This document shows, piece by piece, positions 20,242-64,000 of a stretch of 64,000 bases of DNA. The translations under genes were made by a program, and so were the position numbers. The stretch's first letter is position 1. Each line of letters starts with the position of its first letter. Origin of the DNA: Luteolibacter sp. SL250 (GTDB taxonomy: Bacteria; Verrucomicrobiota; Verrucomicrobiia; Verrucomicrobiales; Akkermansiaceae); NCBI RefSeq assembly GCF_026625605.1, contig NZ_CP113054.1, positions 930,001-994,000 of the forward strand. Reading direction: 5' to 3'. Under the pieces are notes generated by a model that saw nothing but the letters and a program-made list of their open reading frames with translations, ran no database searches and had not been told where the DNA came from.

Positions 20242-20540
20242 CAATGTAAAGTCCGCGAAATGCGTCCGATTAAGGTCAAAATGGAACAGAATTTTGGTGG
20301 TGATTTTGGTGAATTTTATATAAATCATTCTTGTTCAATGAATTGAATGGAGTGAGTTCTGCGGCGAAAAATTGAAAAATACCGCCGTGGTCTTCAATTT
20401 TTTACTTGCTGCCGAGGGATGCCCCCTGCATGGTAACTGGCGAAAGCTTCATTGCGGCTAGGATAGTTTACGAAAACGTCACGGCCCAAAAAACCCTTAG
20501 AACTCGACAAACTCCCTCTCACATTCGAAATCATCCGCAC
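20242..20540. promoter_or_regulatory. AT-rich upstream region of the TIGR02597 gene
   Basis: About 300 bp without a convincing gene. Base composition drops sharply (runs such as GAATTTTATATAAATCATTC near 20310-20330), as expected for a strong promoter and long leader ahead of a secreted protein gene. No defined -35/-10 pair or operator can be assigned with confidence. Confidence 0.35.
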
Positions 20541-21569
20541 ATGAAATCAATCCTTTCATATTCCCTCCTGGCCGCGGCAATGGCTGCAGGTGTGGCCACC
20601 GCCCAGACGACGGCGACGACTGGACCAGTCGGCTATATCACTCTTGGCAACCAAGGTTCGGCCACTGCAGTTCCAGCAAACACTGACGTTGTAGTTTCCA
20701 GTCCTCTCCTTCGTTCGGCTGAATTTGCCGGGTTGGTGGCGAGTGTTTCTGGTAATACTATCGAGGTGTCCGGGGCGCAGGGTTGGACCTCTACTCAGTG
20801 GACCTCGGATGCTTCCAAGCCTTATTTGCTATACTCGGCTAGCGGAGCCCAAGAAGGTCTGAGTGCGATCATTACTGGGAGTTCCGGAAGCTCCCTGACG
20901 GTAACGGTGGTTGACGGTACTCTCAGTGGTCTTGCCGCTGGCGATAAGTTGAAAATCATCCCAGCTTGGACGGTCAAATCCTTCATCAGTCCTGCTTCTG
21001 TTCCTCCAGGAACTCAGTTGTTTGCTTATGCCGGAACTGCTGCTGGTATCAACGTTTCGCCCACTCACATTATGGCATCTACGGGTACAACTTGGGTGTT
21101 TACCCTTGGCGGTACGGGAACCGCTGATAACTTCATCGTTTATCCGACTGAATCACTGGTTCTTCGAACAGGTGCGAATCCTGTAACTAATCTCGTTCTC
21201 AGTGGTGAGGTTCCGACTTTCAAGCATCGCACAACGCTCTCCAAGCTTAGTGCGGCAGGAACTGCCCAAGATATTCGGATCGCTTATACAAGTCCTGTGA
21301 ATCAGCCTTTGCTCGCAAGTGGCTTGGGAAATGCTGCCGGTGACCAGCTTTTCATCTATGATAATGCTGTAACAGGTCGCAATAAGGCTCCGAGTCAGAT
21401 TATGACCTTTACCGGTTCAGCTTGGGTGGGTACCTTTGGTCCTCTCACTGGAAACCAAAACACATATGAACTGGTTGGCGGTCGTGGATACGTTTATCGT
21501 GCCGCAGCATCCACGCCTCAAGGAATTCGAGAATGGTCTAGTTCTCAGGCCTATCTCCCTTCTCTCTAA
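20541..21569 (+). CDS. Exported protein of the TIGR02597 type
   Basis: 342 residues with a signal peptide MKSILSYSLLAAAMAAGVATAQ. The mature part starts PVGYITLGNQGSATAVPANT and has the recurring blocks of the Verrucomicrobial TIGR02597 family as I recall it: SGNTIEVSGAQGWT, GDKLKIIPAWT, GTQLFAY, FKHRTTL, and a C-terminal GRGYVYRAA. Likely a beta-rich cell-surface or matrix protein. Codon use is visibly richer in A/T at third positions than in neighbours. It lies 35 bp before a PEP-CTERM gene with similar composition. Alternative upstream start at 20406 is rejected because the signal peptide begins at 20541. Confidence 0.78.
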   Translation: MKSILSYSLLAAAMAAGVATAQTTATTGPVGYITLGNQGSATAVPANTDVVVSSPLLRSAEFAGLVASVSGNTIEVSGAQGWTSTQWTSDASKPYLLYSASGAQEGLSAIITGSSGSSLTVTVVDGTLSGLAAGDKLKIIPAWTVKSFISPASVPPGTQLFAYAGTAAGINVSPTHIMASTGTTWVFTLGGTGTADNFIVYPTESLVLRTGANPVTNLVLSGEVPTFKHRTTLSKLSAAGTAQDIRIAYTSPVNQPLLASGLGNAAGDQLFIYDNAVTGRNKAPSQIMTFTGSAWVGTFGPLTGNQNTYELVGGRGYVYRAAASTPQGIREWSSSQAYLPSL

Positions 21570-21604
21570 AGAAGCGCAAATTTGATCACAATTTTTCGAA
21601 AACT

Positions 21605-22237
21605 ATGAAAAAGTTGCTTATTACGACGTTCGGTCTGATGGCCGGTTGGAGTGCTGCAAGTGCTGCGACGGTGTTCCAATTCAATGAAGCATTCTCCGGT
21701 GGCATTTCCTCGAACCTCTCCAACGCTGCAGGTGTGGCTGCGACAAACGGTCTCTTTTGGGGCATCATCATCGATAAAGATGGTGGCTCCCTTTCACAGA
21801 CCACCTTTGATCCTATCGTTCCGACTTTCAGTGCTGTAGTGGCACTCACGGCTGGAGGCGCTGCAACTGACGCAATCGTTGTGTTTGCTGATACGTTCAC
21901 TGCTGATCAAAGCTTCGGTGGTGCCTTCACTGATGTTGGAGGTACGACAGGAACTTCTGGTGGTGTTTCTGCTATCACGGTCAATTACACCAATGGTATT
22001 CTGGCAGGACAGACCTTCCAGCTTATCTGGTTTGACTCCGTTACCAAAACTGCTGGGGTGCTTTCTTCTTCGGAATTTGTTCTTCCTGCCGATGCTGGTA
22101 ACGTCGTGACTGTCGATGATGTTTTCATTGGCGCAGATCCGATCCGAGCTGCGACGGGCATTACATTCATTCCCGAGCCATCCACAATGCTTCTCGGTGC
22201 GTTTGGTGCCCTTGGTCTCCTTCGCCGCCGCCGCTGA
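21605..22237 (+). CDS. PEP-CTERM sorting domain protein
   Basis: 210 residues: signal peptide MKKLLITTFGLMAGWSAASA, a Gly/Thr/Ala-rich beta domain, and the C-terminal tripartite signal IPEPSTMLLGAFGALGLL followed by RRRR. Exosortase cleaves at this signal and places the protein on the surface or in the matrix. It shares the lower GC of the preceding gene, and both end at the strong terminator downstream, so they are probably one transcript. Confidence 0.88.
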   Translation: MKKLLITTFGLMAGWSAASAATVFQFNEAFSGGISSNLSNAAGVAATNGLFWGIIIDKDGGSLSQTTFDPIVPTFSAVVALTAGGAATDAIVVFADTFTADQSFGGAFTDVGGTTGTSGGVSAITVNYTNGILAGQTFQLIWFDSVTKTAGVLSSSEFVLPADAGNVVTVDDVFIGADPIRAATGITFIPEPSTMLLGAFGALGLLRRRR

Positions 22238-55730: not shown

Positions 55731-55761
55731 GTTTGCTGGTTTTCAGTGTTCAGTTTTCAGG
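55731..55761. repeat. Left inverted repeat of the four-helix-bundle cassette
   Basis: GTTTGCTGGTTTTCAGTGTTCAG followed by TTTTCAGG. It is the reverse complement, with two differences, of 56178-56207 on the other side of the gene, and is the same family as the repeat in the accB-accC spacer at 17097-17134. Confidence 0.85.
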
Positions 55762-55778
55762 AAGAGAGAAGAAACAAG

Positions 55779-56162
55779 ATGGCGATAACGACCTTTGAGG
55801 ATCTGGAAGTTTGGAAACGCGGGTGCCAGCTCGCGGTGGATGTCTGTGTGCGGACCCACGATTCCAAAAACTACAATCTCAAGGACCAGATGCAGCGCGC
55901 CGCCATCTCCATTCCCTCGAACATCGCCGAAGGTGCCGAGCGCGACAGTGAAGGAGACTTCGTCCGCTTCCTGCGCATCAGCAAAGGTTCCTGCGGCGAA
56001 CTGAGAACCCAGCTCTACATCAGTGAGTGCGTCCAGAAAGCCCTCGGCCAACCGCCCACCGAAAACTCCCGCGAGATGATCAAGGAGACCCGCGAAATCT
56101 CCGCGATGCTCCAGGGTCTCATCCGCAGCATCACTTCCCGCCGCCAGCAAGATTCCCGATAA
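55779..56162 (+). CDS. Four-helix-bundle (S23/intervening-sequence) protein
   Basis: 127 residues from the ATG at 55779. Family hallmarks: FEDLEVWKRGCQLAVDV, DQMQRAAISIPSNIAEGAER, FVRFLRISKGSCGELRTQL and a last amphipathic helix. Such proteins were first found in 23S rRNA intervening sequences and form pentamers of four-helix bundles; their role is unknown. Here the gene lies in the nrdB-nrdA spacer bounded by inverted repeats, suggesting a cassette that entered the operon. Confidence 0.92.
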   Translation: MAITTFEDLEVWKRGCQLAVDVCVRTHDSKNYNLKDQMQRAAISIPSNIAEGAERDSEGDFVRFLRISKGSCGELRTQLYISECVQKALGQPPTENSREMIKETREISAMLQGLIRSITSRRQQDSR

Positions 56163-56247: not shown

Positions 56248-59200
56248 ATGTACCGCTCCCTTAACCTCAACGAAGACCTGGCCCTCAAACAGGTCGTCAC
56301 CGACCGCTTTTCCCTCGAAGACCGTGGCTTCGCCTGGCGCGAAGTCCTCCCTTCGGAAAAGCGCAATCCCATCCCGGACATCACCATCACCCGCGGCACC
56401 ACCGACACCCACTTCTCCCTGGAAGACGTCGCGGACGCCATCGGTGACTCCCTCACCGACCTCCTCATTTCCCGCAGTGAGGACGAGAAATCCATCTTCT
56501 CCGACGTCAACCGCAAGTTCGTCTCCGACGTCGCCCACTCCGTCGCCTCCTTCCTCACCAAGTCCCTGGACGACGGCGGCCGCCTCCGCCTTTCCGAGGG
56601 CGACCTCTACCTCCTCATCGAAAAGGCCCTCCTCGAGAACGAGGCCTACGACGTGGCGAAGTCCCTCGCCTTCCGCCGCTCCCTGGAGAAGACCGGCTCC
56701 GTCGATGTCAACGCCAACCCCCACGCCCTCCCCGTCCGCCTGATCCGCCGCAGCGGCAACGTCGTCCCGTGGTCGGAGACCAAGATCGAGATCGCCGTGC
56801 GGAAGGCCTTCCTCACCATCAAGGAAAACCCGGAGCCCGCCGTCGAGGTCGCCAAGGCCGTCACCGACCGCGTCCGTTGCGGTGACTCCTCCTTCGTCCA
56901 CATCGAGGACGTCCAGGACATGGTCCAGGAGGAACTCATGCGCCAGGGCCACTTCAAGGCCGCCACCCACTACGTCCGCTACCGCGACGAGCGCGCCCGC
57001 CTCCGCCGCGAGGAGGAGGAAAACACCGACGACGCCAACCAGGAGTTCATGATCACCGTCATCACGGATGACGGCCAGTCCTCCTTCTGGGACGGCAGTG
57101 AGTTGCGCAAACGCATCGCCTACGCCTCCATCGGCCTCGACATCGACATGCCGGAAGCCGAGATCGAGCGCGAGCTCCGCCGCTCCGTCGGCAGTGAGAT
57201 CTCCGAAAAGGACCTCAAGAACACCATCATCCTCAATGCGAAGGCCCTCATCGAGAAAGACGCCGACTTCGACAAGTTCGCCGGCCGCATCCTCCTCTCC
57301 TACATCTATGAGGAAGTCCTCGACTGGAGCATCCAGCGCGACGGCATCGACAAGCTCAAGGCCGCGCACAAGGCCGCCTTCAAGAGCTACCTGAAACACG
57401 GCGTCGCCATCAAGCGCCTCCACCCGGAGATCCTGGAGGCCTACAACCTCGACAAGCTCGCGGAAGCCTTCGACCCCACCGCGGACCTGGACTTCGACTA
57501 CCTCGGCATCCAGACCATGTATGACCGCTACCTCATCGTGGACAAGACCGGGGCAAAGCAGCGCCGCATCGAGACGCCCCAGTTCTTCTGGATGCGCGTC
57601 GCCATGGGCCTCTTCAAGAAAGAGGAAACCGCCCGGGAGGACTGGGCCATCCGCCTTTACAACCTCTACAAAGGCCGCCGCTTCTGCTCCTCCACGCCCA
57701 CCCTCTTCAACTCCGGCACCCTCCACAGCCAGCTTTCCTCCTGCTACCTCTACAAGGTGGACGACTCCATCGAGTCCATCATGCAGCGCGGCATCGCGGA
57801 AAACGCCTACCTTTCCAAGTGGGCCGGCGGCCTCGGTGGATCATGGACCGCCGTCCGCGGCACCGGCGGCTACATCCAGGGCACCAATGGCGAGTCCCAA
57901 GGCATCATCCCGTTCCTGAAGCTCCACAACGACCAGCTCGTCGCCGTCAACCAGGGCGGGAAACGCCGCGGCTCCGGCTGCGCCTACCTCGAGACCTGGC
58001 ACAACGACATCGAGGACTTCCTCGAGCTGCGGAAAAACACCGGTGACGAGCGCCGCCGCTGCCATGACATGAACACCGCCAACTGGATCCCCGACCTCTT
58101 CATGAAGCGCATGGAGGACCGGGAACAGTGGACCCTTTTCCGGTCGAACGAGGTCCCGGACCTCCACAACCTCTACGGCCAGGCCTTCGAGCGCCGCTAC
58201 ACGGAGTACGAACAGATGGCTGCCGATGGCAAGATCTGGGGCCGCCAGTTCCCCGCCCTGGAGCTCTGGAAGAGCATGCTCAAGATGCTGTTCGAGACCG
58301 GCCACCCATGGATCACCTTCAAGGATCCCTGCAACGTCCGCTCCCCGCAGGACCACGTCGGCGTCATCCACTCGTCCAACCTCTGCACGGAGATCACGCT
58401 GAACACCTCGGATGAGGAAACCGCCGTCTGCAACCTCGGCTCCGTCATCCTGGACACCCACATCACCCGGGACGGCGCCCTCGACCATGAGATGCTGAAG
58501 GAGACCATCACCGTCGCCATCCGCGCCCTGGACAACGTCATCGACATCAACTTCTACCCCACCACCGCCGCCGCCACCGCCAACAGCCGCCACCGCCCCA
58601 TCGGCATGGGCGTCATGGGCCTCCAGAACGCCCTCTACAAGCGGAACCTCGCCTTCGCCTCGGACGCCGCCGTCGAGTTCAATGACGAGTTCATGGAAGC
58701 CATCGCCTACTACGCCTACAGCGCCTCCAGCGACCTCGCCGCGGAGCGCGGCACCTACTCCACCTACAAGGGGAGCAAGTGGGACCGCGGCCTCATGCCA
58801 CAGGACACCCTCGATCTCCTCGAGGACGAGCGCGGTCGCAAGATCGACGTCCCGCGCGGCGGAAAGATGGATTGGTCCGTCGTCCGGGAAAAGATCGCGA
58901 AGAACGGCATGCGGAACTCCAACGTCCTCGCCATCGCCCCCACCGCGACGATCTCGAACATCACCGGCACCACCCCCTGCATCGAGCCGAACTACAAGAA
59001 CCTCTACGTGAAGTCCAACCTCTCCGGCGAATTCATTGTCCTTAACCGGGAGCTCGTGCGGGATCTGAAAAAAGCCGGCCTCTGGAACCAGGAAATGGTG
59101 GATGAACTCAAATACTTCAAAGGAGAACTTGAGGACATCGATTGCATCCCCGCCGAAATCAAGAAGAAGCATAAGACCGTCTTCGGCATACCGTTCGAAT

Positions 59201-59529
59201 ACATCATCGACGCTGCCGCCCGCCGGCAGAAGTGGATCGACCAATCTCAGTCGGTGAACCTGTTCCTCGCCACCCCGGACATGAAGACCCTCTCGCACAT
59301 GTATCGCCGCGCTTGGGACAAGGGCCTCAAGACTACCTACTACCTCCGCACTCTCCAGGCCAACGACAGCGAATCGTTTACTGGGAAAGTCGTGAAAGAT
59401 ATCCGCGGCTTCATGGCCGGTGCCACCGCCCCGGCAACGGCTCCGAAGCGGGAATACACCGCGGAAGAGAAGAACGCCTGCAGCATCGATGCGATGCTGA
59501 ACGGCGGGACGTGTGAGGCTTGCCAATAA
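56248..59529 (+). CDS. nrdA: Ribonucleotide reductase alpha subunit
   Basis: Catalytic subunit, 1093 residues, close to the roughly 1040 of the chlamydial protein and much longer than E. coli NrdA (about 760). The extra N-terminal 380 residues contain ATP-cone domains (about 45-140 and 165-255, with SGNVVPWSETKIEIAVRKAF) for dATP/ATP activity control. Catalytic residues: Cys499 (SSCYLY), Asn711-Cys713-Glu715 (SNLCTE), Cys728 (AVCNLG), the Tyr pair 1031-1032 (TTYYLR) and the C-terminal thiol shuttle Cys1089/Cys1092 (GTCEACQ). Forms the enzyme with NrdB at 54626. Confidence 0.96.
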   Translation: MYRSLNLNEDLALKQVVTDRFSLEDRGFAWREVLPSEKRNPIPDITITRGTTDTHFSLEDVADAIGDSLTDLLISRSEDEKSIFSDVNRKFVSDVAHSVASFLTKSLDDGGRLRLSEGDLYLLIEKALLENEAYDVAKSLAFRRSLEKTGSVDVNANPHALPVRLIRRSGNVVPWSETKIEIAVRKAFLTIKENPEPAVEVAKAVTDRVRCGDSSFVHIEDVQDMVQEELMRQGHFKAATHYVRYRDERARLRREEEENTDDANQEFMITVITDDGQSSFWDGSELRKRIAYASIGLDIDMPEAEIERELRRSVGSEISEKDLKNTIILNAKALIEKDADFDKFAGRILLSYIYEEVLDWSIQRDGIDKLKAAHKAAFKSYLKHGVAIKRLHPEILEAYNLDKLAEAFDPTADLDFDYLGIQTMYDRYLIVDKTGAKQRRIETPQFFWMRVAMGLFKKEETAREDWAIRLYNLYKGRRFCSSTPTLFNSGTLHSQLSSCYLYKVDDSIESIMQRGIAENAYLSKWAGGLGGSWTAVRGTGGYIQGTNGESQGIIPFLKLHNDQLVAVNQGGKRRGSGCAYLETWHNDIEDFLELRKNTGDERRRCHDMNTANWIPDLFMKRMEDREQWTLFRSNEVPDLHNLYGQAFERRYTEYEQMAADGKIWGRQFPALELWKSMLKMLFETGHPWITFKDPCNVRSPQDHVGVIHSSNLCTEITLNTSDEETAVCNLGSVILDTHITRDGALDHEMLKETITVAIRALDNVIDINFYPTTAAATANSRHRPIGMGVMGLQNALYKRNLAFASDAAVEFNDEFMEAIAYYAYSASSDLAAERGTYSTYKGSKWDRGLMPQDTLDLLEDERGRKIDVPRGGKMDWSVVREKIAKNGMRNSNVLAIAPTATISNITGTTPCIEPNYKNLYVKSNLSGEFIVLNRELVRDLKKAGLWNQEMVDELKYFKGELEDIDCIPAEIKKKHKTVFGIPFEYIIDAAARRQKWIDQSQSVNLFLATPDMKTLSHMYRRAWDKGLKTTYYLRTLQANDSESFTGKVVKDIRGFMAGATAPATAPKREYTAEEKNACSIDAMLNGGTCEACQ

Positions 59530-59663
59530 TCAAGCCATTACCTTGATAAATTATGTGACAATCACTTATGAGCAAATCTGAAAAAAGAGAATCGAAAGAA
59601 TCCCGGTTCTATTTTTGAAGAGTGTAAAAAAATGAAGAGCACACCCAGATTTGGGTGTAAAAA
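59530..59663 (+). promoter_or_regulatory. AT-rich leader with start-codon-proximal hairpin
   Basis: 134 bp spacer where base composition switches from GC- to AT-rich. ACACCCA (59641-59647) and TGGGTGT (59652-59658) form a perfect 7-bp stem with a 4-base loop, 5 bases before the ATG at 59664. GTGTAAAAA-ATG occurs twice (near 59619 and 59655). GTGACAATCAC near 59555 is a second small palindrome. The hairpin could hide the ribosome site or be an operator. Confidence 0.5.
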
Positions 59664-60887
59664 ATGGACTCTATCACAAAAATTCATCAACCCTATAATA
59701 GAGAACAAAAGGCGCTTGAGTTAGAGCAAGCGTTCTCTCCTTCGTCCCCAATTTTAGAAAAGCAGTTCTTTGCGGGTAGGATCAGTGAAATCGATGAGGT
59801 AGTCGATTCAATCAATGAACGAGGACAGCATGTAATTGTCTATGGGGAAAGGGGGGTCGGTAAAACGTCGTTTTCAAATATTATAGGTAAGGAGCTCATA
59901 GGAGTTTTTCCTGTTAAGGTAACTTGCAATCGAAGTGATTCCTTCAAAAATATATGGGGGAAGGCATTTGCGAAAGTAAAGTTTGAGAAGAACTCAGTTG
60001 GAGTTGGTTACCTCCCCGTTAATACGGTAGAAGAGCTTCAATTAGACCTTTTTCTGCCTGAAAGTGAAAATGTCTCTCCGTTAGATATTCAACTAATTCT
60101 TGAAAAGGTCGAATTTAACTTACTATTTATTTTTGATGAATACGACTCCATTATAGACCCTGATATTCTGCGAAAAATGGCAGATACAATCAAGGCGCTG
60201 TCGGATAACGCTCCTAAGATCACCGTGATGATAGTGGGTATAGCGGACAATGTCGCTGGTTTAATTGGAGCTCATCCATCAATCGAGAGATGTATGAGGC
60301 AGGTGTTAATGCCTCGTATGTCTGATTCGGAATTAGATTTAATTATTAGCAGGGGCCTTGATTTCCTGGGATTCGGAGTTCAGCCGGAAGTAAGGGCGAG
60401 AGTGGTGAAGTTGTCGCAAGGCTTCCCTCATTTTACCCACTTGCTTACTAAGCAAGCAGCAAAAGCTACTATCGAAGATGGTGCTTTTACGATTGGATCC
60501 GAGCAATATGCTAGAGCTTTGGTGGCTAGCGTTGCGAGAGTTGATGAGTCAATCCGTTTGGTCTATCAACAAGCAACTTTTTCAACCAAAGATAAATCTA
60601 ATTTTGAGGCCGTTCTATGGGCTTGTGCAAATTCTGCATCCGATGAGCATGGAACCTTTAGTACGAAGGATGTCGTTTCTTCATTTGAAATTCTCACTAA
60701 GAAATCGGCTAAATCTGAATCTCTTTCATATCATGTGGGTAAGTTATGCTTAAAAGAGCGTGGATGCGTCCTTCATAGAGTGGAAGCAGGAAAATATGTG
60801 CGTTTCAGATTCGTTAATCCACTCTTTAGGGCTTATGTAAAGATGAAATATGAATCGGTGGTGAATGTGAGAAAATTGAGATTTTGA
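59664..60887 (+). CDS. ORC/Cdc6-like AAA+ ATPase with C-terminal winged helix
   Basis: 407 residues. Walker A GERGVGKTS (61-69) after FFAGRISEIDEVVDSINERG, Walker B LLFIFDEYD (153-161), sensor-1 MIVGIADN (189-196), and the sensor-2/arginine-finger region HPSIERCMRQVLMPRMSDSE (204-223). C-terminal residues about 330-400 (SYHVGKLCLKERGCVLHRVE, then FVNPLFRAYV) form a winged-helix DNA-binding module. Resembles nSTAND/ORC-type ATPases of defence islands. Its AT-rich codons differ sharply from all neighbours, suggesting lateral transfer. Pairs with the deaminase 23 bp downstream; probably senses or assembles with it. Confidence 0.82.
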   Translation: MDSITKIHQPYNREQKALELEQAFSPSSPILEKQFFAGRISEIDEVVDSINERGQHVIVYGERGVGKTSFSNIIGKELIGVFPVKVTCNRSDSFKNIWGKAFAKVKFEKNSVGVGYLPVNTVEELQLDLFLPESENVSPLDIQLILEKVEFNLLFIFDEYDSIIDPDILRKMADTIKALSDNAPKITVMIVGIADNVAGLIGAHPSIERCMRQVLMPRMSDSELDLIISRGLDFLGFGVQPEVRARVVKLSQGFPHFTHLLTKQAAKATIEDGAFTIGSEQYARALVASVARVDESIRLVYQQATFSTKDKSNFEAVLWACANSASDEHGTFSTKDVVSSFEILTKKSAKSESLSYHVGKLCLKERGCVLHRVEAGKYVRFRFVNPLFRAYVKMKYESVVNVRKLRF

Positions 60888-60910
60888 TCTATTGAGGTAA
60901 TCATATTATT

Positions 60911-62548
60911 ATGTCAGATATTTCATACACTCTTTTTCAGGAATCCAAGCATCCTACTGAATTGGTGTTTGGACTTGTTTACCCATTGGGAATCGAACGT
61001 GAAAGCTTGATTCAAGCATTGCGGGAAGAATTGAGTTTATATGGATATGATCTCAAGCATATCAGGATAAGTTCATTTCTTGCGAGTGCGAAATCAAAAG
61101 ATCCAGATTATAACTTTTCTGGAGATTATTTGAGGAGTCGCAATCTGATGAAGGCCGGGAACGAAACACGCGCCCTTTTCTCTGATGATATTCTGATGAG
61201 GTTGGCAACTTGGGAAATAAGGCAGTTGCGGAAGCAGGGGGTTCCTGCAAAACAGCAAGGGAAAGCAACCTCGATCAGAAAGGTCGTTTATCTGATCGAT
61301 TCAATTAAAAATCGAGCAGAACTTGAGTTTCTCAAGGGAATATATGCAAATGGGTTTTATCTGCTAGCATTAAATTCTCCAAAAGAAAGGCGCCGAGCTT
61401 TCTTGCTTACCAAGCGTGGCACTATAAATGAGAAGCAGGCACTCAAGCAAGTGAATGACTTAATGGATCTAGATCAAGATGATATAGATGGGCATGGTCA
61501 AGAAGTTGGGAAAGTTTTTCATTTGGCGGATTATTTTTTAGACGGAAACGCAGATGTCTCAGGTATTCAGGTCCGATTGGATCGATTTTTGAGAATGGTA
61601 TTCAACGATCCGTTTGTAACTCCGACTTTTGAAGAATATGCTATGCACGTTGCATATACCGCTGCGACCAAGACGGCGGACTTGTCAAGGCAGGTGGGGG
61701 CGGTTGTGGCCCAAAATCAATCTATACTATCGCTTGGAGCGAATGAGGTTCCTAAATTCGGAGGAGGCACTTATTGGCCATATACAGATGCAAGAGGAGT
61801 TGTTTTGGATTCTCCCGGAGGAAGGGATTACAAAAGGCTTTACGAGCCTAATAAGGCTGAAATTCAAGATATAAAACTTCAGTTGTTTGAAGGCCTTACA
61901 CAGGCGGGATTGATTAAGAAGACTCCATTAGCGTTGGGAGATGACCAGAAAAAGAAATTTAATGCGGTCATCGCGAAAACTCGGATTGATAGTTTGACCG
62001 AGTTCGGAAGAATGTTGCACGCGGAGATGGATGCCTTATTAGAATGTGCTAAACGGGGAGTTGCTACCGCGGATACGGAGATGTACGTGACAACTTTCCC
62101 ATGTCATAATTGTGCAAAGCATATCATAGGTGCAGGTGTTTCGCGTGTGGTGTATATTGAACCTTACCAGAAAAGCAAGGCCCCGGAGTTTCATGACGAT
62201 TCATGTGAATATTTAGATAGTCCTGGAAGTGGGACGATGTCGGAGCGATTGGTATTTACTCCGTTTGAGGGATTGGGGCCGCGCTATTATATGATGCTAT
62301 TTTCAATGATGCTAAGTCCGGGTGCTGAGAAAAAAAGAAGAGGTGAAGGAGGTAAGAAGCTCATATTTGATAAGGCTAATGCTGTTCCAAGGCTGAAGAT
62401 GCTTCCTCAGAATTATCTGCAATTAGAGGAATATGTGCTTCATGAGTTAGAGTCTAGTTTGGAGCCGAAAGCTGGAGGCTCAAGAGGCGCTAGGCGTTCT
62501 AAGCCTTATCTGAAGAAGGGGCGTAGGCATGGTGCGCAAAACAAATGA
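60911..62548 (+). CDS. AvcD-like deoxycytidylate deaminase with N-terminal kinase-like domain
   Basis: 545 residues. N-terminal domain (about 15-235) resembles the nucleotide-kinase-like part of AvcD/dCTP deaminase defence proteins: ELVFGLVYPLGIERESLIQA, where the P-loop lacks the usual GK(S/T). The C-terminal cytidine-deaminase fold (about 240-520) has the zinc/catalytic motif HAE (370-372, LHAEMDALLECAKRG) and PCHNC (397-401, zinc Cys398 and Cys401). Family members deplete dCTP during phage infection. Located directly downstream of the ATPase, in the same AT-rich composition. A basic C-terminal tail (KPYLKKGRRHG) may bind nucleic acid. Confidence 0.82.
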   Translation: MSDISYTLFQESKHPTELVFGLVYPLGIERESLIQALREELSLYGYDLKHIRISSFLASAKSKDPDYNFSGDYLRSRNLMKAGNETRALFSDDILMRLATWEIRQLRKQGVPAKQQGKATSIRKVVYLIDSIKNRAELEFLKGIYANGFYLLALNSPKERRRAFLLTKRGTINEKQALKQVNDLMDLDQDDIDGHGQEVGKVFHLADYFLDGNADVSGIQVRLDRFLRMVFNDPFVTPTFEEYAMHVAYTAATKTADLSRQVGAVVAQNQSILSLGANEVPKFGGGTYWPYTDARGVVLDSPGGRDYKRLYEPNKAEIQDIKLQLFEGLTQAGLIKKTPLALGDDQKKKFNAVIAKTRIDSLTEFGRMLHAEMDALLECAKRGVATADTEMYVTTFPCHNCAKHIIGAGVSRVVYIEPYQKSKAPEFHDDSCEYLDSPGSGTMSERLVFTPFEGLGPRYYMMLFSMMLSPGAEKKRRGEGGKKLIFDKANAVPRLKMLPQNYLQLEEYVLHELESSLEPKAGGSRGARRSKPYLKKGRRHGAQNK

Positions 62549-62570
62549 ATAACTATTTTTGAAAATTTAA

Positions 62571-62598
62571 TTGACATTGCGATAATAACATATATATT
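62571..62598 (+). promoter_or_regulatory. Strong sigma-70-like promoter
   Basis: TTGACA at 62571-62576 and TATATT at 62593-62598, spacer 16. Consensus -35 and near-consensus -10. It starts a new transcript after the deaminase gene, at about 62605. Confidence 0.7.
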
Positions 62599-62606
62599 TA
62601 TTGCCG

Positions 62607-62798
62607 ATGAAACCAGTCCTGCGATCTTCTCTTTCTCCTGCATTTGTTGAAAAATTTGATCAAGCGCCTAAAAGTAAATCATCAACTTACCAAGATACCG
62701 TTAGGTATTTTAGTGGTTCCATAGACACAAGAAATTCAAATTCAAAAGATGAAGTGTCACGTCTTGGTGTGGATCGAATCAGATCTCCTAAGAGATAA
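62607..62798 (+). CDS. Possible small protein or the body of a small RNA
   Basis: ATG at 62607 gives 63 residues (MKPVLRSSLSPAFVEKFDQA and on to LGVDRIRSPKR), Ser/Lys-rich and of no known family. The ATG is almost at the predicted transcription start, so translation would be leaderless. With promoter at 62571 and terminator at 62822 the transcript is about 250 nt, so this might equally be a regulatory RNA, as AvcI is for AvcD. Coding status unproven. Confidence 0.35.
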   Translation: MKPVLRSSLSPAFVEKFDQAPKSKSSTYQDTVRYFSGSIDTRNSNSKDEVSRLGVDRIRSPKR

Positions 62799-62821
62799 TA
62801 TAAGTGATAATCTTATTGAAG

Positions 62822-62857
62822 ATGCAAAGGCGGTCATGCGTCTTTGCATTTTTTTTG
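62822..62857 (+). terminator. Rho-independent terminator
   Basis: ATGCAAAG (62822-62829) pairs with CTTTGCAT (62842-62849), extended inside by GCG/CGT, then a run of eight T. Ends the short unit after the deaminase gene. Confidence 0.88.
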
Positions 62858-63018
62858 AGGGTTCATGTCAGGTTGTATATCTGATATGCGAGATCATCCG
62901 ACGAATTATTTCGGGCATCAGTCTGTGCAGTCATGCTTGGTGTTGCTATAAGTGGTGGTGTCATTCTTGCAGGTTTCCTGCATGCGGGGCCGGTTTATTT
63001 CGAGACGAAGCCGACTAG

Positions 63019-63400
63019 GTGCCAGACAGCAACTTTCTATGAGAACAGCTGGAGAGGGGGTGATAAACACCACACCTATCGGTATCTCTCAAGTCGACCA
63101 GCTACCATATCGGTTGGAAACCCGTTTTCCATAGGCGGATTCGGCCGCACATTGCCTGCCAACAAGCATGAGCAGCTCAAGACGAGGGAAATGTGTCCGT
63201 GGCGATCAGGTCGGGTCGTCTCTGTGAAGCCATGAAGAGGTGTTAGATGGAACCTGTACGAAGGAGAGTAGGGCCCACGGGAAGTGGGTTGCTGCTATAA
63301 GGATTATCCATCGCGACAGCACCAATACCGTGGTTTGTAAAAATCTCGTGGCGTTAACAGGGCGCTATGAAAGCGGCAGCGTTGGATTTTCCCCTTATTC
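63019..63400 (+). mobile_element. Possible 5' fragment of a group II intron or other structured RNA
   Basis: The stretch 62858-63415 has no convincing gene. From GTGCCAGACAGC at 63019 it holds many paired segments and phrases such as GTGAAGCCATGAAGAGG and GATGGAACCTGTACGAAGGA (about 63222-63265), which remind me of the domain I part of bacterial group II introns that precedes the reverse transcriptase. No reverse transcriptase frame or domain V/VI follows, so it would be a truncated remnant. Recognition by memory only. Confidence 0.3.
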
Positions 63401-63415
63401 CGTCCGATGGGAATG

Positions 63416-64000
63416 TCATTCCCTCTCCAGCGTCTCATGGACCGTCTTCACCAACTGCTCATCCAGTTTGAGCGAGCTGGCCAGACGGCGGAGGAAGAGG
63501 TGCTCCGAGGGTGAGTCCAGGTCGATGGCGGTGAGGGCGGCGCCGTAGATCTCGCTGGCTTCCTCCGGGCCGTTGGCCAGACCGGCGATGTGCTCGACGG
63601 TGGGCGGGGCGTTGAGGGCGCTGGTGAGCCGCGCTTTTTCCGCAGGCTCCACCGGGGCCTGGTCGATGGCACCGGCCAGGGCGGTCATTTCGATGCTGTC
63701 GATGGTGCCGTCCGCCGCCGCGGCGGCGATCATCGCGAGGATCATCTTCATCGGCAGCTCGCCGGTGACCTTCACCTGCACGGCGGCCACCTCCAGATTC
63801 GCCGGCAGCGGCGGGGGAGGGGTGGCCGGGGCGGGTGCCGGGGTCGCGGGAAGCGCGGCCGCCGTCTGGGAAACCTGCTGGCTCTGCTGCCACTTCTGGT
63901 AGGCGTAGTAGCCTATCCCCGCCAGTGCCGCCATGCCGCCCACCTTCACCGCGTTTTTCTGGATCTTGCTCCGCGCCTTGGAATTCATCAGCACGGAAAC
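63416..64000 (-). CDS. DUF533 (YebE/TerB-like) protein, 5' partial
   Basis: At least 192 residues. A membrane-proximal hydrophobic part (VKVGGMAALAGIGYYAYQKW), an Ala/Pro linker, then a TerB-like helical domain: MILAMIAAAAADGTIDSIEM, where ADGTID matches the DUF533 acidic loop, and EIYGAALTAIDLDSPSEHLFLRRLA. The frame stays open to the window edge and full-length relatives have more N-terminal residues, so the start is probably outside; internal GTG 63994 or ATG 63988 are alternatives. Inner-membrane protein of unknown role. GC-rich, thus core genome again. Confidence 0.8.
   Translation of the reverse strand, partial: VSVLMNSKARSKIQKNAVKVGGMAALAGIGYYAYQKWQQSQQVSQTAAALPATPAPAPATPPPPLPANLEVAAVQVKVTGELPMKMILAMIAAAAADGTIDSIEMTALAGAIDQAPVEPAEKARLTSALNAPPTVEHIAGLANGPEEASEIYGAALTAIDLDSPSEHLFLRRLASSLKLDEQLVKTVHETLERE

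What the first reader, a model, noticed from the sequence alone, without database searches (positions are those of the whole stretch)
59664..62548. Two-gene AAA+ ATPase and AvcD-like deaminase cassette: candidate anti-phage system
An ORC/Cdc6-like ATPase with Walker A and B and a C-terminal winged helix precedes by 23 bp a deaminase with HAE and PCHNC motifs and a kinase-like N-terminus. AvcD/dCTP deaminases are known anti-phage nucleotide depleters, normally controlled by a small RNA (AvcI) and not by an ATPase. ATPase plus deaminase recalls RADAR (RdrA with an adenosine deaminase), but here the deaminase is of the cytidine type. Both genes are AT-rich against a GC-rich chromosome. Together they may be a distinct, ATPase-gated variant.
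Basis: partly seen in the sequence, partly recalled or inferred. Interest (0 to 1): 0.88.

Follow-up and report, generated by a model that had tools for sequence, protein, structure and literature searches.

The report
Swappable defence genes beside ribonucleotide reductase
A known kind of phage-fighting enzyme that destroys a DNA building block lies next to an ATPase that elsewhere mostly travels alone; the two do not look like a matched pair, but they sit at a spot behind a ribonucleotide reductase gene where related bacteria carry different, often defence-like, genes.

Summary
ATPase 59664-60887 and deaminase 60911-62548 are intact, 23 bp apart, on an AT-rich insert. The deaminase belongs to the known anti-phage dCTP deaminase (AvcD) family. 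The ATPase model (pLDDT 95) resembles Orc1/Cdc6 and archaeal AAA+/STAND ATPases.

The proposed ATPase-gated system is not supported. None of 134 loci with this ATPase shows the deaminase, and none of 29 other deaminase loci shows the ATPase. Of 145 genomes of the window's family, only the window's own has both. The ATPase is mostly a lone gene, found among other places in the P2 defence hotspot.

The unexpected result is the site. The insert starts right behind nrdA. In relatives the same spot often holds other AT-rich cargo: 14 of 20 sites are at or below 50% GC, against 3 of 80 control stretches. PADLOC models match proteins at 13 of 21 hand-picked sites (CBASS, AbiD, AbiU and others). A same-genus genome keeps the right flank (353 nt, 97% identical) with different cargo; another genus has a dCTP deaminase there without the ATPase. 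So this looks like a defence-cargo hotspot holding two independently mobile genes, plus a possible 63-aa third gene.

The parts
56248..59529 (+). nrdA-like ribonucleotide reductase large subunit (1093 aa): conserved left flank. Name recognised from the sequence, not from a family search
   Evidence: ORF; 84-89% identical copies in five relatives; DNA similarity to the relatives ends at about 59525-59530.
59530..63434 (.). variable AT-rich insert (cargo) between nrdA and the right flank shared with G495
   Evidence: GC 40-43% in 60001-63000; G495 shares 63435-63787 at 96.9% nt identity (353 nt) but has other cargo in between.
59640..59659 (.). short inverted repeat ACACCC-N6-GGGTGT just before the ATPase start; meaning unknown (operator or start-site hairpin)
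   Evidence: listed there as a minus-strand terminator-like site.
59664..60887 (+). AAA+/nSTAND1-type ATPase with ORC/Cdc6-like fold, 407 aa
   Evidence: Pfam PF20703 28.9 bits against cut-off 27.1; phrog_6841, unknown function, 4e-49; model pLDDT 95.3; 2qen Z 21.6 and 2qby_A Z 19.9.
60911..62548 (+). anti-phage dCTP deaminase (AvcD family), 545 aa, catalytic HAE and PCHNC motifs
   Evidence: NF041025 409.4 bits, cut-off 400; PADLOC dCTPase 3e-145; Pfam dCMP_cyt_deam_1 1.5e-17.
62571..62598 (+). sigma-70-like promoter match TTGACA-16-TATATT (11 of 12)
   Evidence: The scan found no more such sites than shuffles (8 against 7.7), so this is suggestive only.
62607..62798 (+). 63-aa ORF, candidate third gene of the insert (or part of an RNA)
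   Evidence: Codon score 0.227; its other two frames 0.092 and -0.112; 63-codon in-frame stretches of the deaminase (part of the training set) at least 0.156, one out-of-frame set at most 0.085. No plasmid match, no Pfam match.
62818..62857 (+). hairpin with T-run, looks like an intrinsic terminator
   Evidence: Fold of 62605-62862 (z -2.19) and sequence; the consensus scan does not list it.
63416..63994 (-). right-flank gene (function not determined)
   Evidence: ORF; 63435-63787 is 96.9% nt identical in G495.

Best explanation
The two genes are separate defence cargo that share one AT-rich insert at a cargo hotspot directly behind nrdA. SHOWN by comparison: the deaminase belongs to the anti-phage dCTP deaminase family with intact motifs; the ATPase family mostly stands alone and recurs at phage accessory-gene sites; neither was found with the other elsewhere; the nrdA-3' spot carries different AT-rich cargo in many relatives, with defence-model matches at many of the sites tested. 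INFERRED mechanism: on phage infection the deaminase is released from an inhibitor and converts dCTP/dCMP to dUTP/dUMP, starving phage DNA synthesis, as in AvcID. In AvcID the inhibitor is an RNA lost when the phage stops host transcription; here there is no room for such an RNA between ATPase and deaminase, so the inhibitor, if any, is more likely the ~250-nt unit just downstream (RNA or 63-aa protein). The ATPase is most likely an independent exclusion gene that acts as an AAA+/STAND switch on the invading replicon, perhaps binding DNA through its C-terminal domain (weak inference). No promoter match was found between nrdA and the ATPase, so read-through from nrdA may drive the genes (untested).
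For: Deaminase family. No pairing: 0 of 134 ATPase loci with a deaminase and 0 of 28 deaminase loci with the ATPase by profile search; G432 likewise by tblastn; ATPase in 2 of 145 and deaminase in 3 of 145 family genomes, both only in the window's genome. ATPase not operonic: nearest called ORF on the same strand in 41 of 76 loci downstream and 44 of 76 upstream. ATPase as phage cargo: P2-like region between replication endonuclease and portal (hotspot described in PMC9122126, passages), lambdoid site between antitermination gene and holin, cluster N central variable region in Kevin1 (PMC6544188, passages). Hotspot: 14 of 20 sites with the 2 kb after nrdA at or below 50% GC against 3 of 80 same-genome control stretches, 17 of 20 lower than all four of their own controls; PADLOC matches at 13 of 21 chosen loci; G495 keeps the right flank with other cargo; G432 has a deaminase right after nrdA.
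Against: No expression, phage or enzyme data. The 23-bp spacing makes co-transcription of ATPase and deaminase likely (although two weak promoter-like matches, 9 of 12, overlap the gap at 60876-60904 and 60884-60912), and a unique new operon could still be functional. ATPase neighbours on chromosomes show no defence enrichment that I could see (lists capped at 25 families), which weakens a defence role outside phages. The 21 loci given to PADLOC were picked by eye from 45; 8 gave nothing, and several hits are to generic kinase, helicase or methyltransferase models. The hotspot is not general: 5 of 15 same-genus and 7 of 13 sister-genus sites have a first kilobase above 50% GC, some with ordinary genes, and in one genus four sites (L213, L215, L225, L227) share the same ordinary-GC gene after nrdA.
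Confidence: 0.78

Rival explanations
1. ATPase-gated deaminase: the two genes form one system in which the ATPase senses phage and switches the deaminase on (RADAR-like logic with a dCTP deaminase).
For: 23-bp spacing, same strand, no terminator match in the gap; no space for an upstream AvcI RNA, whereas 19 of 28 other deaminase loci have at least 190 bp without a called ORF of 80 aa there, some limited by the contig end.
Against: No second example in 134 ATPase loci or 28 deaminase loci, G432 or 145 family genomes. Two weak promoter-like matches overlap the gap. Lack of upstream space is not special: L110 and L111 also have a gene 31-38 bp upstream, neither of them this ATPase.
Confidence: 0.08
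2. Deaminase plus a small downstream regulator: the 62605-62857 unit (RNA or 63-aa protein) is the antitoxin or partner, replacing the upstream AvcI RNA. Compatible with the main explanation.
For: Promoter match 11 of 12 and a hairpin with T-run bracket it; codon score like the two genes; seven similar deaminases (L009, L016, L161-L165; L162 and L163 nearly the same) have a 49-80 aa ORF at or overlapping the deaminase stop with a WPxWK motif.
Against: The window's ORF lacks that motif and is not clearly related to it: against six such proteins the score beats shuffles for two (L164 p 0.002, L009 p 0.012; uncorrected for eleven comparisons) and not for four. No homologue found on plasmids or elsewhere in its own genome. 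Equally similar deaminases L109, L110, L111 and the partial L172 lack the motif. The region shows no similarity to the flanks of 28 deaminase loci beyond one 12-nt match.
Confidence: 0.25
3. The ATPase is not a defence gene but a replication, partition or regulation factor of mobile elements that came along.
For: Orc1/Cdc6, RuvB and TnsC are among its nearest folds or profile matches; present on plasmids, 260 bp from a ParB-family gene in one; chromosomal neighbours of no common kind.
Against: No recurrent replication or transposition partner in the neighbours tested; sits at phage accessory sites where defence genes are known to lie.
Confidence: 0.35
4. The ATPase belongs to a transposition module (TniB/IstB/TnsC-like).
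For: TnsC and MuB structures among the matches (Z about 15).
Against: No recurrent transposase partner: no Pfam family in more than 3 of 90 or 2 of 82 neighbours, IS1-type transposase in 2 of 82.
Confidence: 0.02

Closest known systems
Anti-phage dCTP deaminase / AvcID (AvcD toxin, AvcI RNA antitoxin)
   Same: Same protein family over most of the length, same catalytic motifs and an N-terminal P-loop-like stretch without a Walker lysine.
   Different: Only 23 bp upstream of the gene, so no AvcI between it and the ATPase; candidate small unit downstream; the NF041025 match ends at residue 466 of 545 (the PADLOC match at 524).
Phage cargo ATPases (phrog_6841; Kevin1 gp30; the Salmonella/E. coli P2-region ATPase annotated 'nSTAND1 domain-containing NTPase')
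   Same: Same ATPase family; Kevin1 gp30 34% and the Salmonella P2-region protein 28% identical by tblastn; similar size; single gene.
   Different: Those stand alone in phages; here the gene shares a chromosomal insert with a deaminase. I did not search the literature for tests of them beyond the passages named.
RADAR (RdrA ATPase with RdrB adenosine deaminase)
   Same: Only the idea of an ATPase gene beside a deaminase gene.
   Different: Deaminase is of the cytidine/dCMP type; no RADAR model among the matches; pairing not conserved.
Known defence hotspots (P2/P4 hotspots, PMC9122126; core defence hotspots of Pseudomonas, PMC10250203, listing only)
   Same: A fixed spot with exchanged defence cargo.
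   Different: Here the anchor is the end of nrdA, in an unnamed family; no description of it appeared in the listings.

Membership tests
Anti-phage dCTP deaminase (NF041025) | Whole-protein score above the curated cut-off | tested here: met
   409.4 bits against 400.
Anti-phage dCTP deaminase (NF041025) | Catalytic motifs HAE and PCxxC | tested here: met
   Residues 370-372 and 397-401, invariant in alignment A8; PCxxC also kept in the alignment.
Anti-phage dCTP deaminase (NF041025) | Deaminates dCTP/dCMP and protects from phages | not testable with these tools
   Needs enzyme and plaque assays.
AvcID type III toxin-antitoxin | AvcI RNA encoded just upstream of the deaminase (the upstream position is recalled, not read; a transcript slightly under 300 nt was seen in PMC10511110) | tested here: not met
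   Only 23 bp between ATPase stop and deaminase start. An RNA elsewhere, e.g. downstream, is not excluded.
RADAR | Adenosine-type deaminase with RdrA ATPase | tested here: not met
   Deaminase matches dCMP_cyt_deam_1; no adenosine-deaminase or RADAR model among matches to E 1. That PADLOC-DB holds RADAR models is recalled, not checked.
nSTAND1 NTPase (Pfam PF20703) | Score above gathering cut-off | tested here: met
   28.9 against 27.1, a narrow pass.
TniB/IstB/TnsC transposition ATPases | Conserved partner transposase | tested here: not met
   No family recurs in more than 3 of 90 or 2 of 82 neighbours (172 of 232 neighbour ORFs tested).
TniB/IstB/TnsC transposition ATPases | Shared fold | tested here: inconclusive
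   TnsC rows at Z about 14-15, below Orc1 and 2qen/2fna at 20-22.
Chromosomal defence hotspot | Conserved flank with interchangeable defence cargo | tested here: met
   defence matches at 13 of 21 chosen loci. Not seen at all sites of the family.

The most novel reading that the evidence does not exclude
In this lineage the deaminase has given up the upstream AvcI RNA and is controlled by a protein or RNA from its own insert: the 63-aa downstream gene (perhaps a fast-evolving counterpart of the WPxWK small protein that follows related deaminases) or, less likely, the ATPase. At the same time the nrdA-3' spot places such nucleotide-depleting cargo in the ribonucleotide reductase transcript, tying defence to dNTP supply.
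Probability: 0.15. Interest if true: 0.75.

Novelty: new member of a known kind. Interest (0 to 1): 0.42.

Why it matters
The claimed new two-gene system does not hold, which saves effort. What remains is useful: a defence-cargo hotspot behind nrdA that can be mined in the window's family, a widespread single-gene ATPase family carried at phage accessory sites with no assigned function in the libraries searched, and a conserved small protein behind one group of anti-phage dCTP deaminases that could be an antitoxin or partner.

Tried and rejected
Viral-contig scans with the single proteins found nothing; alignments were needed. Rfam gave no match at E 1 in 59400-63500. RADAR, TniB/TnsC and an upstream AvcI were considered and rejected as above. 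A similarity of the window's 63-aa ORF to that of L109, which I saw by eye, failed the shuffle test (score 17, shuffle mean 24.3). Repeats at the insert ends gave no obvious attachment site, and I saw no shared motif past the nrdA stop codon by eye. A search for the WPxWK small protein in 288 genomes of the phylum gave one weak match (E 3.9e-4), with no deaminase recognised by eye in its 3-kb locus. The 20-23 kb GC dip holds ordinary-looking ORFs. Unequal or dropped rows: L081 has no single ATPase ORF and was left out of the neighbour counts (79 of 80 used; 76 had a called ORF downstream and 76 upstream); 8 of the 15 plasmid records with the ATPase were not fetched; viral loci contain near-duplicates (e.g. 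L162/L163, L168/L169, L151-L154); 172 of 232 neighbour ORFs went to the family searches, whose lists show only the 25 leading families; L112 has a broken deaminase frame, and L114 gave no ORF by my rule although a stop-free frame shows; L172 is partial. Of the nrdA sites, 45 of 103 were fetched (15 of 18 same-genus, 13 of 14 sister-genus), L212 has only 300 bp after nrdA, L191 only 925 bp, and L217 is largely masked; control stretches were taken for 20 genomes at places I chose arbitrarily.
Full report
OBSERVATION. The deaminase scores above the curated cut-off of the anti-phage dCTP deaminase family (409.4 against 400), matches PADLOC dCTPase at 3e-145 and Pfam dCMP_cyt_deam_1. HAE and PCHNC are invariant in a five-sequence alignment with near relatives. 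Its N-terminal P-loop-like stretch lacks the Walker lysine, as do the relatives aligned. The ATPase passes the Pfam nSTAND1 cut-off narrowly (28.9 against 27.1), matches phrog_6841 of unknown function (4e-49), and gives an AlphaFold model with mean pLDDT 95.3 whose best structural matches are 2qen (Z 21.6, rmsd 6.6, 324 aligned), 2fna_A (Z 20.4, rmsd 7.3, 322 aligned), 1w5t_A and 2qby_A (Z 19.9, rmsd 7.4 and 8.5), i.e. archaeal AAA+ ATPases and Orc1/Cdc6 proteins (Foldseek ranks 2qby_A first). Neighbouring Z values are ties.

PAIRING. With 44 viral contigs and ten other loci this makes 134 ATPase loci; a deaminase profile finds none in them, and the ATPase profile finds none in 28 other deaminase loci (13 viral, 9 from plasmid or phage records, 6 from the same phylum). 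Flanks were up to 4-6 kb and often shorter. Among 145 genomes of the window's family the ATPase occurs in 2 and the deaminase in 3, both only in the window's own genome. In G432, of another genus, a deaminase (33% identical) lies right behind nrdA, followed by a gene that reads as a DNA methyltransferase, without the ATPase (the methyltransferase is named by eye). In G015 and G274 the deaminase lies beside genes that read as type I restriction-modification genes (the two hsdM-like proteins are 78% identical; names by eye). So the deaminase changes partners.

THE ATPASE FAMILY. It behaves as a lone gene: the nearest called ORF is on the same strand in 41 of 76 loci downstream and 44 of 76 upstream. 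In 172 tested neighbours no Pfam family occurs in more than 3 of 90 or 2 of 82 and no PADLOC family in more than 2 of 90 or 1 of 82; a partner without a model would be missed. In phages it lies at accessory-gene sites: between replication endonuclease and portal in P2-like elements, the region described as a defence hotspot in PMC9122126 (passages); between antitermination gene and holin in lambdoid prophages; in the central variable region of mycobacteriophage Kevin1 (PMC6544188, passages, calls gene 30 an orpham whose study may inform immunity); and between tail genes and an integrase in a Gordonia phage. In E. coli it is rare: 9 of 5,426 genomes match the Salmonella gene, and I looked at three of the nine. 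Phage exclusion is its likeliest role, but the mixed chromosomal neighbourhoods argue for caution.

THE SITE. DNA similarity to relatives ends at the nrdA stop. The nrdA end was found in 103 of 145 family genomes; 45 downstream stretches were read. In 20 genomes with control stretches from the same genome, the 2 kb after nrdA (925 bp in L191) is at or below 50% GC in 14, against 3 of 80 control 2-kb stretches, and lower than all four own controls in 17 of 20; L197, L198 and L199 are not. A first kilobase at or below 50% GC is seen in 10 of 15 same-genus and 6 of 13 sister-genus sites. Other sites show ordinary genes, and in another genus four sites (L213, L215, L225, L227) share one ordinary-GC gene there. 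From 21 of the 45 sites, picked by eye, I gave 30 proteins to PADLOC: 13 sites have a match at 1e-5 or better: kinase-like plus helicase-like (L183), AbiD 3e-68 and a type II methyltransferase (L184), NsnA-like (L186), HNH effector-like (L187), PD-T4-6-like kinase with LmuA-like N-terminus (L189, reads as SIR2 plus kinase), DrmA, weak (L190), PDC-S60 and CHAT (L192), CBASS cyclase 3e-80 with TIR effector 1e-85 (L193), LmuA/ThsA-like (L195), PD-Lambda-2_B (L203), CARF protein (L206), AbiU (L218), REase (L224). Eight have none (L185, L191, L194, L197, L205, L220, L221, L228). G495, same genus, shares 353 nt from window 63435 on at 96.9% identity, with the kinase/LmuA-like gene in between: the same slot, different cargo. 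Listings of three paper searches showed no description of this site.

A POSSIBLE THIRD GENE. Behind the deaminase lie a promoter match of 11 of 12 (no excess of such matches over shuffles in the region), a 63-aa ORF whose codon score (0.227) resembles that of the two genes and exceeds its other frames, and a hairpin with T-run (not listed by the scan). Seven similar deaminases have a small ORF at the deaminase stop with a WPxWK motif; the five of these searched have no Pfam match above a cut-off (best E 0.0086). The window's ORF is not clearly related to it, and equally similar deaminases in L109, L110, L111 and L172 lack it.

MECHANISM. AvcD-type deaminases deplete dCTP/dCMP and are set free when phages shut down host transcription and the AvcI RNA decays (PMC10511110: abstract and first of seven parts of the text, and passages). 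The window's protein should act the same way (inferred). There is no place for AvcI between ATPase and deaminase, so control may come from the downstream unit, or be absent. The ATPase probably works alone. Whether the genes share a transcript with nrdA is untested; no promoter match lies between nrdA and the ATPase, while two weak ones overlap the gap before the deaminase.

VERDICT. Real genes and a real defence context, but on present evidence not a new two-gene system: two independently mobile genes in a swappable slot.

Noticed in passing
window 59530-63434 and loci L183-L187, L189-L228, L232: The spot right behind nrdA is a cargo hotspot in the window's genus and a sister genus, with CBASS, AbiD, AbiU, kinase, SIR2-like and other defence-model matches at many sites.
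   Followed up: partly
L009, L016, L161, L162, L163, L164, L165 (just after the deaminase stop): A small protein of 49-80 aa with a WPxWK motif follows one group of anti-phage dCTP deaminases; five of them matched no Pfam family above cut-off. Possible antitoxin or partner.
   Followed up: partly
L109 1466-7509 and L111 1686-11968: Two relatives carry the deaminase beside genes that read as type I restriction-modification genes (hsdM, hsdS; in L111 also an hsdR-like gene by eye); in L111 a DUF6161 protein lies between hsdS and the deaminase.
   Followed up: partly
L013 911-2649 (G251): An ATPase relative is followed, with overlapping stop and start, by a 192-aa ORF that contains an R-X4-H motif (RNDMIH), which looks HEPN-like by eye.
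   Followed up: no
window 20406-22237: A GC dip (49-55%) with a 387-aa ORF and a 210-aa ORF ending in a PEP-CTERM-like sorting signal (read by eye); not defence-like.
   Followed up: partly
window 55746-56162: A 138-aa ORF between the nrdB-like and nrdA-like genes that looks like a four-helix-bundle (23S rRNA intervening sequence) protein by eye.
   Followed up: no
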